This document shows, in pieces, positions 12,855-34,518 of a stretch of 38,963 nucleotides of DNA. Numbering within the stretch: position 1 is the first letter of the stretch; the number at the start of each line of letters is the position of its first letter. Source of the stretch: Prevotella sp. (GTDB lineage Bacteria > Bacteroidota > Bacteroidia > Bacteroidales > Bacteroidaceae); NCBI GenBank assembly GCA_017847725.1, contig JAGAXW010000022.1, forward strand, positions 1-38,963, read 5' to 3'. Made by a program: the position numbers and the translations under genes. The notes below the pieces were generated by a model, which made no database searches, was not told where the DNA came from, and saw only the letters and a list, made by a program, of their open reading frames with translations.

Positions 12855-12917
12855 CCCATCCGGCCCCATGCCTGACGGCCAAAATCCGTCCTGACATTTT
12901 CATGGCCGAAAAAGGCA

Positions 12918-12977
12918 AAAGCCTACACTAAGTCATTTAACAGACTGAATTACAATAGATTAGACCGTGTAGGCTTT
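12918..12977. repeat. Left 60-bp cassette bounded by inverted 11-mers
   Basis: AAAGCCTACAC at 12918-12928 and GTGTAGGCTTT at 12967-12977 enclose a 38-base core. The right-hand cassette has exactly the same length. Compared with the reverse complement of the right core, about half of the core positions match, mainly a TTAACA and a TTAG block. Confidence 0.8.
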
Positions 12978-12992
12978 ATCAAAAGCCTACAC
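12967..12992. repeat. 26-base hairpin with 11-bp stem and 4-base loop, left
   Basis: GTGTAGGCTTT, a loop ATCA, then AAAGCCTACAC. The right-hand equivalent at 13205-13230 is its reverse complement except for one loop base. Confidence 0.85.
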
Positions 12993-13013
12993 AAAGCCTA
13001 CACAAGCCTACAC
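12982..13013. repeat. Left tandem array: three AAAGCCTACAC units
   Basis: Units start at 12982, 12993 and 13004. The third lacks one A and is 10 bases. The orientation is opposite to the right array. Confidence 0.9.
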
Positions 13014-13039
13014 GGGCAAAAATAGGGGTAGGAAGAAAA

Positions 13040-13144
13040 TTTCCACGGCGTGGAAATCGGATTTCCAAGCGGCGGAAATTAGTTTTCCATGCGGCGGAAA
13101 TATATTTTCCACGTGACGGAAATTTGATTTCCACGCCGTGGAAA
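13040..13144. repeat. Five 17-bp palindromes at exact 22-bp period
   Basis: Units of form TTTCC-N7-GGAAA start at 13040, 13062, 13084, 13106 and 13128 and are separated by 5-base AT-rich spacers. The outer two, TTTCCACGGCGTGGAAA and TTTCCACGCCGTGGAAA, are exact reverse complements of each other and nearly perfect palindromes. The inner three keep the TTTCCA and CGGAAA arms with a varied centre. Conserved arms and fixed spacing suggest a dimeric DNA-binding protein occupying the same face of the helix every two turns. Confidence 0.92.
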
Positions 13145-13160
13145 TTTTGAATCCCGTCGG

Positions 13161-13215
13161 ATGTAGGCTTCGTGTAGGCTTTGTGTAGGCTTTGTGTAGG
13201 CTTTGTGTAGGCTTT
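13161..13215. repeat. Right tandem array: five GTGTAGGCTTT units
   Basis: Five contiguous 11-bp units start at 13161, 13172, 13183, 13194 and 13205. The last four are identical and the first differs at two positions (ATGTAGGCTTC). The array is in the same 11-bp register as the palindrome starts. Confidence 0.93.
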
Positions 13216-13219
13216 TGAG

Positions 13220-13279
13220 AAAGCCTACACTGGCTAACCAACTACGTGATAGAGTGTTAAGTCGTCCAGTGTAGGCTTT
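13220..13279. repeat. Right 60-bp cassette bounded by inverted 11-mers
   Basis: AAAGCCTACAC at 13220-13230 and GTGTAGGCTTT at 13269-13279 enclose a 38-base core. With the preceding tandem unit it forms a 26-base hairpin (13205-13230, loop TGAG). Confidence 0.8.
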
Positions 13280-13408
13280 TGGCATTTTTTATGCCGAAAA
13301 TGCCAGGAGTGATTTTACGGAGTGCTGCCGATTCGCGGTTTGGCGGGTCCATGATATTTAATAATGTTAATAATTCATGGTTTGTTTCGTCTATTTGAAT
13401 AAATGTTG

Positions 13409-32894: not shown

Positions 32895-32985
32895 GGAAGG
32901 TTGGCAGAGTGATCGATCGCGCTGGACTCGAAATCCGGTATACCCCTTTCGGGTATCGGGGGTTTGAATCCCTCACCTTCCGCCA
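32895..32985 (+). tRNA. tRNA-Ser(CGA)
   Basis: The acceptor stem is GGAAGGT/ACCTTCC with discriminator G and an encoded CCA at 32983-32985. The anticodon loop CTCGAAA gives CGA, reading UCG. The long variable arm (TACCC-TTTC-GGGTA type) and T-loop TTTGAATC are typical of class II tRNA-Ser. It has its own promoter and terminator. Confidence 0.95.
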
Positions 32986-34328: not shown

Positions 34329-34339
34329 CCATCTTTCTG

Positions 34340-34413
34340 CGGTGCGTACGAGATTCGAACTCGTGACCTCCTGCGTGACAGGCAGGCATTCTAACCTACT
34401 GAACTAACGCACC
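34340..34413 (-). tRNA. tRNA-Asp(GTC), second copy in the transcript
   Basis: A 74-base cloverleaf: acceptor GGTGCGT/ACGCACC, discriminator G, anticodon loop CTGTCAC giving GTC and T-loop TTCGAATC. CCA is not encoded. The sequence is identical to the copy at 34445-34518. Confidence 0.95.
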
Positions 34414-34444
34414 CCATTTTTTTGCTTTCAAGACCTCCGAGATG

Positions 34445-34518
34445 CGGTGCGTACGAGATTCGAACTCGTGACCTCCTGCGTGACAGGCAGGCATTCTAAC
34501 CTACTGAACTAACGCACC
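34445..34518 (-). tRNA. tRNA-Asp(GTC), first copy in the transcript
   Basis: Same 74-base sequence as the other copy, separated from it by 31 unrelated bases. It is transcribed first, from the promoter at 34548-34555. Confidence 0.95.

What the first reader, a model, noticed from the sequence alone, without database searches (positions are those of the whole stretch)
12918..13280. Undescribed symmetric repeat structure with 11-bp and 22-bp periods
Seen directly: twelve copies of an 11-mer (AAAGCCTACAC or its complement), arranged as cassette, three tandem copies, five palindromes, five inverted tandem copies, cassette. Paired copies on the two sides share a midpoint of about 13098.5. The region is gene-free and sits between two metabolic genes. 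Known parallel: plasmid R1 parC has two groups of five 11-bp direct repeats bound by ParR. No par or rep gene is present here. Inference: a protein-binding array (chromosome organisation, partition or replication control) or a folded RNA/DNA element.
Basis: partly seen in the sequence, partly recalled or inferred. Interest (0 to 1): 0.88.

Follow-up and report, generated by a model that had tools for sequence, protein, structure and literature searches.

The report
Dispersed iteron arrays matching primase-helicase genes
The odd symmetric repeat is one of several scattered copies of a DNA array that, in related bacteria, sits in front of a gene for a DNA primase-helicase and often shares its repeat letters with that gene's own array, which hints at replication-origin-like sites strewn over the chromosome.

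Summary
The element spans 12881-13316: two mirrored arrays of 11-bp units, each with an outer cassette, around five 22-bp palindromes. The own genome has eight such elements; at least eight other genomes of the genus have relatives. In 42 of 44 cassettes the span GCCTACA-TGTAGGC is exactly 54 bp. Key finding: the same build, often with quite different letters, lies upstream of BT4734/VapE-family genes (primase plus helicase domains). Of 18 such genes (at least 40% identity, a cut-off set afterwards) 11 have mirrored chains of at least three units on each side and 14 at least three plus two; 0 of 147 control genes do. A prediction held: the unit read before the vapE gene of genome G007 located five more complete elements and a single cassette there. 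The window element is best read as a solo copy of a vapE-cognate iteron array, origin- or operator-like, mobile within lineages. Binding, replication and transposition are inferred. Against it: the own genome (80.6% complete) shows no BT4734-type gene, and two solo elements of G018 match none of the vapE arrays read there. The design resembles phage-satellite pri-rep/ori modules but differs in position, centre and dispersed copies. I found no report of it.

The parts
12881..13316 (.). whole dyad-symmetric element (solo copy), axis 13098.5
   Evidence: self-match to its reverse complement, 70%
12881..12917 (+). left terminal inverted repeat, a degenerate copy of the TTCACTYTGACATTTT end seen in the other elements of this genome
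12918..12977 (+). left cassette: 11-mer, 38 bp, inverted 11-mer (GCCTACA to TGTAGGC 54 bp, 12921-12974)
12938..12962 (.). IHF-like back-to-back core of the left cassette (TAA...TTA)
   Evidence: positions 18-42 of the cassette
12982..13013 (+). left iteron array: two 11-mers and one 10-mer
13039..13145 (.). centre: five 22-bp-spaced palindromes TTTCC...GGAAA
   Evidence: D1; lag 22 is the top lag
13162..13215 (-). right iteron array: five units, 10 or 11 bp apart
13220..13279 (-). right cassette (54-bp core 13223-13276)
13235..13259 (.). IHF-like core of the right cassette
   Evidence: positions 18-42 of the cassette
13280..13316 (-). right terminal inverted repeat, degenerate

Best explanation
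The element is a solo, non-coding copy of the iteron array that belongs to a BT4734/VapE-type primase-helicase gene. In relatives the same array stands just before the start of that gene. The most likely working: the primase-helicase, as two oligomers on the two mirrored 11-bp arrays, binds the iterons on one helical face; a DNA-bending protein of the HU/IHF type folds each 54-bp cassette so that the outer inverted unit joins the complex; the 22-bp palindromes in the centre serve as a second, structural or melting, segment where unwinding and priming start, and the array also controls the adjacent gene. Solo copies such as the window's respond to the initiator in trans and have been copied to new intergenic places. 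Shown here: architecture, fixed cassette spacing, linkage to vapE, units that agree between vapE array and solo copies in five genomes and differ between gene lineages, and one recent copy. Inferred: binding, bending, origin activity and the way of copying.
For: Eight elements in the own genome, 16 cassettes in eight inward-facing pairs. 42 of 44 cassettes are exactly 54 bp where 44-56 was allowed; interior positions A19 and T40 are invariant in the 38 of 44 tabulated. In four species an element stands before the start of the same ~710-aa gene: 84, 89 and 91 bp in three, 14 bp in G242 by the longest frame or about 120 bp by the homologous start. That gene has BT4734-like_N and VapE-like domains, matches phage primase/helicase families and PDB 7pds, 'Similar to D. 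nodosus vapE'. Upstream of the 18 genes with at least 40% identity and at least 600 bp upstream: mirrored chains of 3+3 units or more in 11 of 18, 3+2 or more in 14 of 18, controls 0 of 147 for both; long-loop inverted repeats scoring 34 or more in 15 of 18, controls 2 of 145 after setting aside two control rows that are themselves a vapE element; best lag 21 or 22 in 17 of 18. Without the five loci that led to the idea: 9, 10, 10 and 12 of 13. Prediction: the G007 vapE unit AACGTCA finds 13 cassettes at 54 bp on seven contigs, plus one stray one-mismatch hit, reversed control 0; one pair is at vapE, five pairs and one single elsewhere. IHF consensus at fixed cassette positions: within two mismatches in 14 of 37 and 20 of 37, shuffles mean 0.5, maxima 4 and 3 (cassettes of one genome are related, so not independent). 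PMC5862659 (passages) lists BT4734-like as an archaeo-eukaryotic primase family and predicts PF05272 to be helicases of mobile-element replication.
Against: The own genome shows no BT4734-like_N domain (80.6% complete), only a short VapE-domain gene (33% identity, 444-aa frame). In G018 two solo elements (C283 with CCTACA units, C105 with GCC[AG]TCAC units) match none of the eight vapE upstream regions read there; a ninth vapE fragment lies at a contig end, so its upstream is missing. I saw no matching vapE array for the elements of G258 C44 or of G096. vapE genes under 40% identity mostly lack mirrored 11-bp arrays: 3 of 23 rows reach 3+2. Of the 18 close genes, L221 and L222 have weak or partial arrays. 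The centres are 54-68% AT, not clearly a melting region. In the own genome the distances between cassettes do not keep strict steps of 11. No target-site duplication, no empty site and no gene-bearing version was found. There are no binding or replication data.
Confidence: 0.55

Rival explanations
1. Operator and regulon: the arrays are binding sites of a repressor or activator (VapE itself, an HTH protein or DUF6078); the copy at vapE is autoregulatory and solo copies regulate other genes. No replication takes place.
For: The element lies at the promoter side of vapE; DUF6078 genes (G040, G379) and an HTH gene (G414) are neighbours in some loci.
Against: Solo elements lie at unrelated genes, also between convergent genes (G000 C17 and C54), and few neighbours are shared between species. 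A symmetric array of a dozen units is more than a usual operator.
Confidence: 0.22
2. Chromosome organisation or partition site.
For: Helical phasing, several copies per genome, bending-type motif.
Against: Patchy in the genus: the loose pattern hits 25 of 398 genomes, 19 of them once only, and the reversed control also hits 19. Positions are shared between species only beside vapE and at one G258/G414 locus, as far as neighbours within 4 kb show.
Confidence: 0.1
3. Ordinary MITE moved by a transposase that reads the terminal repeats; the array inside is cargo and the vapE linkage is incidental.
For: Terminal inverted repeats, small non-coding element, one pair 99.6% identical over 469 bp with unrelated flanks in G258.
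Against: vapE linkage across species and agreement of units; vapE lies outside the cassette pair. A search for the end motif found it only at these elements, but that search was insensitive: it found 4 of the 16 known ends.
Confidence: 0.09
4. A structured RNA or transcription terminator.
For: Very stable predicted fold, z -18.4.
Against: Any long inverted array folds so; symmetric on both strands, no Rfam family at the gathering score, units conserved at DNA helical spacing.
Confidence: 0.03

Closest known systems
PICI / SaPI pri-rep-ori replication module
   Same: A primase-helicase gene next to two sets of short iterons with unit sequences particular to each element (PMC6092414 and PMC7581432: passages read).
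   Different: There the origin is 3' of rep and flanks an AT-rich region; here the array is 5' of the gene, units are 11 bp in mirrored order with outer 54-bp cassettes, the centre is a 22-bp palindrome array, and solo copies are scattered over the chromosome.
SCCmec Cch2 putative origin
   Same: A helicase of the SaPI5 Rep type binds direct repeats beside its operon (PMC7581432, passages).
   Different: Three 5-nt iterons, downstream of the gene, in a recombinase-bearing cassette; no dispersed solo arrays in the passages read.
BrickBuilt MITE of Porphyromonas gingivalis
   Same: Dispersed intergenic element with terminal inverted repeats and internal short-period repeats (PMC4596501: abstract and passages).
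   Different: 23-nt direct tandem repeats; no mirrored iterons and no primase-helicase link in what I read; sequences were not compared.
PINSR repeat of Prevotella intermedia
   Same: Amplified intergenic Prevotella repeat (PMC4755523: abstract and passages).
Plasmid R1 parC
   Different: Eight copies in the genome, mirrored order, outer cassettes; no partition gene among the neighbours annotated.

Membership tests
PICI-type pri-rep-ori | primase/helicase initiator gene adjacent to the iterons | tested here: met
   met for the vapE-linked copies; not for the window copy itself
PICI-type pri-rep-ori | two sets of iterons | tested here: met
PICI-type pri-rep-ori | AT-rich region between the sets | tested here: inconclusive
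   centres 54-68% AT in ten elements chosen from the set
PICI-type pri-rep-ori | origin directly 3' of rep | tested here: not met
   arrays lie 5' of the gene
PICI-type pri-rep-ori | integrase, attachment sites, phage induction | not tested
   no search for integrases beside vapE was made
PICI-type pri-rep-ori | drives autonomous replication | not testable with these tools
   needs a bench test
MITE | short, non-coding, dispersed copies | tested here: met
   29 elements listed: two are overlapped by short frames of 95 and 110 aa, three have a mechanically called frame that runs 6-35 bp into the outer edge, the rest are intergenic
MITE | terminal inverted repeats | tested here: met
   by eye; motif differs by lineage and is degenerate in some ends
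MITE | target-site duplication | tested here: inconclusive
   none seen by eye; no empty site available
MITE | cognate insertion sequence with the same ends | tested here: inconclusive
   own genome: four matches to the end motif, all at these elements, but 12 of the 16 known ends were missed too
BrickBuilt | 23-nt direct tandem repeats | tested here: not met
   units are 11 bp mirrored and 22-bp palindromes
parC-type centromere | one site beside parM/parR-type genes | tested here: inconclusive
   eight elements in the genome; the two genes flanking the window element are not of that type; other neighbours were not annotated

The most novel reading that the evidence does not exclude
BT4734/VapE primase-helicases and their matched arrays form a class of chromosomal multi-origin systems: one initiator gene with its own array plus several dispersed, initiator-matched solo origins, which spread as selfish 'origin satellites' or act as auxiliary chromosome origins, each lineage with its own private unit code.
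Probability: 0.33. Interest if true: 0.9.

Novelty: new variant of a known kind. Interest (0 to 1): 0.76.

Why it matters
VapE/BT4734-type genes occur in most of the genomes of the genus that I searched (24 of 34), and nothing I read tells what these chromosomal enzymes do. A matched, re-coded DNA array in front of the gene, and scattered solo copies of it, give a concrete substrate to test whether they start local replication, regulate genes, defend the cell or copy their own sites. If the arrays fire, some bacterial chromosomes carry several initiator-specific origins, against the usual single-origin picture.

Tried and rejected
Rfam: three matches, all below the gathering score and of eukaryotic type. 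Exact-cassette scans of species genomes and of viral contigs gave 2 and 1 stretches; read they look like chance or unrelated hairpins. DNA searches with the element: eight plasmid records with short weak matches, no phage match. VapE relatives in viral contigs by the search for related loci: none confirmed. NCBIfam gave no family for the VapE; PADLOC gave PrimPol and DRT-associated models, a lead not followed. Search for a longer, gene-bearing version: in the eight genomes searched with the model the strong cassettes are in pairs 64-367 bp apart; some weak hits stand alone, and in G007 one of 13. Empty site: in the relatives hit, thioesterase and epimerase genes did not appear together at one place, so none could be shown. 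G047 and G040 C44 were false leads. One search failed through my miscount of the pattern (55 instead of 54 positions) and one search used a unit in the wrong frame; both are void as tests and were replaced. Structure prediction was not used, because its stated rule does not cover loci from the fetch from genomes.

Papers: searches showed no report of such arrays or of vapE-linked iterons in Bacteroidales; most subscription journals are not in the library. Passages of PMC7145576, PMC12118408, PMC2880560 and PMC10061031 were also read and added nothing decisive.

Full report
What is in the window. The element is longer than stated, 12881-13316, because terminal inverted repeats lie outside the cassettes; it matches its own reverse complement over that span at 70%. 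Twelve GCCTACA/TGTAGGC cores, ten of them full 11-mers, stand as cassette, three, five palindromes, five, cassette around axis 13098.5. The flanking genes are an acyl-ACP thioesterase and a glyoxalase-family epimerase, the latter followed by a carboxyl transferase.

The family in the own genome. The 11-mer occurs 46 times in 2.39 Mb, all in eight clusters on eight contigs; the reversed control occurs 0 and 1 times. Each cluster is an element of the same build. One (C17) is a minimal form: two cassettes back to back without arrays and centre. The 16 cassettes form eight inward-facing pairs.

Relatives. The exact cassette is in none of the other 199 genomes searched. A looser inverted core is in 25 of 398 genomes; more than one hit only in the own genome, G040, G379, G258, G096 and G242, while 19 have a single hit and the reversed control also hits 19 genomes, so most single hits are chance (G414 is one that is not). 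Reading these and weak blastn leads shows the same build in G040, G379, G258, G242, G414 and G018 and a looser form in G096. A tolerant pattern on 26 element loci found 44 cassettes (none in G018 C283), of which 42 are exactly 54 bp (44-56 allowed; the two others, 50 and 56, are from G096). I tabulated 38 of the 44, leaving out four near-duplicates and the two of other length. Apart from the end units, which the pattern selects for, A19 and T40 are invariant and the interior reads TTAAC...YT...A...TTA. At fixed positions this fits two back-to-back IHF consensus sites: within two mismatches in 14 of 37 and 20 of 37, against shuffle means of 0.5 and maxima of 4 and 3. The IHF consensus is recalled, related cassettes are not independent, and binding is inference. 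Distances between the two cassettes of a pair are 334, 345-346, 355-356 or 367 in G040 and G379, about steps of 11 as for one helical face; in the own genome they are 64, 289, 290, 300, 302, 310, 310 and 343, which do not keep such steps.

The centre. In ten elements chosen from eight genomes the top lag is 22 in eight and 21 in two, though the sequences are unrelated: TTTCC..GGAAA in the own genome, GGTTACT..AGTAACC in G040, AAAACTG..CAGTTTT in G379, AATTCTCTAGAGAATT in G258, GGGAAC..GTTCCC in G007. The build is conserved, the letters are not.

The link to a gene. Comparison of the genes around 29 elements (up to two per side, within 4 kb) showed one striking shared neighbour: in G040, G379, G242 and G414 an element lies before the start of the same ~710-aa gene, 65-83% identical: 91, 84 and 89 bp in G040, G379 and G414; in G242 14 bp by the longest frame, about 120 bp by the homologous start. 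The gene has BT4734-like_N (PF08800) and VapE-like (PF05272) domains and matches PHROG primases and helicases and PDB 7pds. The other shared neighbours are one orthologous locus of G414 and G258 (90.7% over 1803 bp), DUF6078 and HTH genes at the vapE loci, and weak paralogy.

Test on other vapE genes. The VapE search covered 34 genomes that I chose (eight with elements, 26 others); 24 have a hit at 1e-30, 107 matches in all. I took upstream regions of 42 of the longer matches: 22 of the 30 loci given and 20 fetched; one locus is in twice (L206, L231) and one (L200) has too little upstream. Fifteen of them had been read by eye before the scores were written, and the 40% cut-off was set after seeing the results. 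For the 18 genes at 40% identity or more: mirrored 11-bp chains of at least 3+3 units in 11, at least 3+2 in 14; of 147 upstream regions of other genes in the same loci none exceeds 2+2. Long-loop inverted repeats of 34 or more: 15 of 18, against 4 of 147 controls, of which two are the G018 C71 vapE element that my exclusion list had missed and two are one region read on both strands. Best lag 21 or 22: 17 of 18; 16 of 18 reach 0.55, against 6 of 142 controls, five of these at lag 21. Five of the 18 (L197, L198, L201, L202, L203) had led to the idea; the other 13 give 9 (3+3), 10 (3+2), 10 (inverted repeat) and 12 (lag). In the 23 rows under 40% identity (22 distinct loci), 3 reach 3+2 (L241, L242, L244), but 11 reach 0.55 at lag 21/22, five of these in one genome. 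Of eight Bacteroides, Parabacteroides and faecal phage-labelled records that I opened, out of 94 plasmid and 390 phage records matched, the best lag is 22 in six, 23 in one and 18 in one; five reach 0.55. So the 22-bp array may be the older mark of the gene family, and mirrored 11-bp arrays with cassettes the mark of one branch.

Unit code. Units differ between genes: GCCTACA, AACGTCA, CCGACAT, CTCTACT, TCTACTA, CCATAAA, CTACATA, CCTACAT. Solo elements agree with a resident vapE array in five genomes: G040 (seven solo), G379 (two), G258 (three; its vapE copy is cut by a contig end), G414 (C15) and G007; G242 has only the vapE copy. By eye, G414 C21 also shares CCTGCAC units with the partial array before the G414 C4 gene. 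G007 was a prediction: the unit read before its vapE gene finds 13 cassettes at 54 bp on seven contigs and one stray hit, control 0; they form six complete elements of 422 or 423 bp, one of them at vapE, plus a single, 79-93% alike in the better orientation. A first attempt used the wrong frame and tests nothing. Against: the own genome has no BT4734-like_N domain; in G018 the units of C283 and C105 are in none of the eight vapE upstream regions read (a ninth fragment lies at a contig end); I saw no match for G258 C44 or G096.

Mobility. Two G258 elements are 99.6% identical over 469 bp with different flanks. The G007 C27 copy matches the vapE-linked one over about 551 bp (94%) up to a few bases before the vapE start codon, but no vapE follows: either the site was copied with its promoter or the gene was lost there. 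No target duplication or empty site was seen. In G040 the two ends of an element are of two types, usually one of each (by eye).

Mechanism. I favour a replication-initiation complex: primase-helicase on two mirrored arrays, bent cassettes, a central structural segment, and control of its own promoter. PMC5862659 (passages) lists BT4734-like proteins among archaeo-eukaryotic primases and predicts PF05272 to be helicases of mobile-element replication. PMC6092414 (passages) describes PICI origins as two iteron sets flanking an AT-rich region and shows that rep plus ori maintain a plasmid; PMC7581432 (passages) shows a helicase binding such repeats. Shown here are anatomy, linkage and, in five genomes, matched units; all biochemical steps are inferred.

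Against. The own genome, 80.6% complete, has eight solo elements and no BT4734-like_N domain; its one VapE hit is a short frame with 22-bp palindromes but, by eye, no 11-bp arrays upstream. G018 is unmatched. The centre is not clearly AT-rich. L221 and L222 have only partial arrays. An operator role cannot be excluded.

Novelty. Nine library searches gave no description. It works like an initiator-iteron replicon; it fails the PICI feature 'origin 3' of rep' and others were not tested, so I do not file it as a PICI; MITE membership is open. I rate it a new variant of a known kind.

Noticed in passing
L173 (G018:C105:26458 on); L172 (G018:C71): Two further systems in one genome with the same build but other units (GCC[AG]TCAC in a solo element, and a TTACATACAT type before a vapE gene), so several private codes can coexist.
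   Followed up: partly
L167 (G414:C21) and L169 (G258:C44): Element with CCTGCAC units at the same place in two species, 90.7% alike over 1803 bp including the neighbouring gene.
   Followed up: partly
L267 (G007:C27) 751-1301: Solo copy that ends a few bases before where a vapE start codon would be, carrying the vapE promoter but no vapE.
   Followed up: partly
L248, L249, L250 (Bacteroides, Parabacteroides), upstream of the BT4734/BF3469 gene: 22-bp-period palindrome arrays of unrelated sequence before BT4734-family genes; an HU-family gene (L250) or a DUF6078 gene (L249) is a neighbour.
   Followed up: partly
L218 (G000:C28): Short VapE-domain gene of the own genome with three 22-bp-spaced palindromes upstream, seen by eye.
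   Followed up: no
L191:1450-3588 (VapE): PADLOC models PrimPol and RTasVirE-PriCT2 match its primase part, a possible link to defence systems.
   Followed up: no
window 34339-34518 and 32895-32985: Two adjacent tRNA-Asp genes and one tRNA-Ser gene.
   Followed up: no
L132-L134 (G096): Looser elements with CCTACACC-type units and cassettes of 50, 54 and 56 bp; perhaps a different branch.
   Followed up: no
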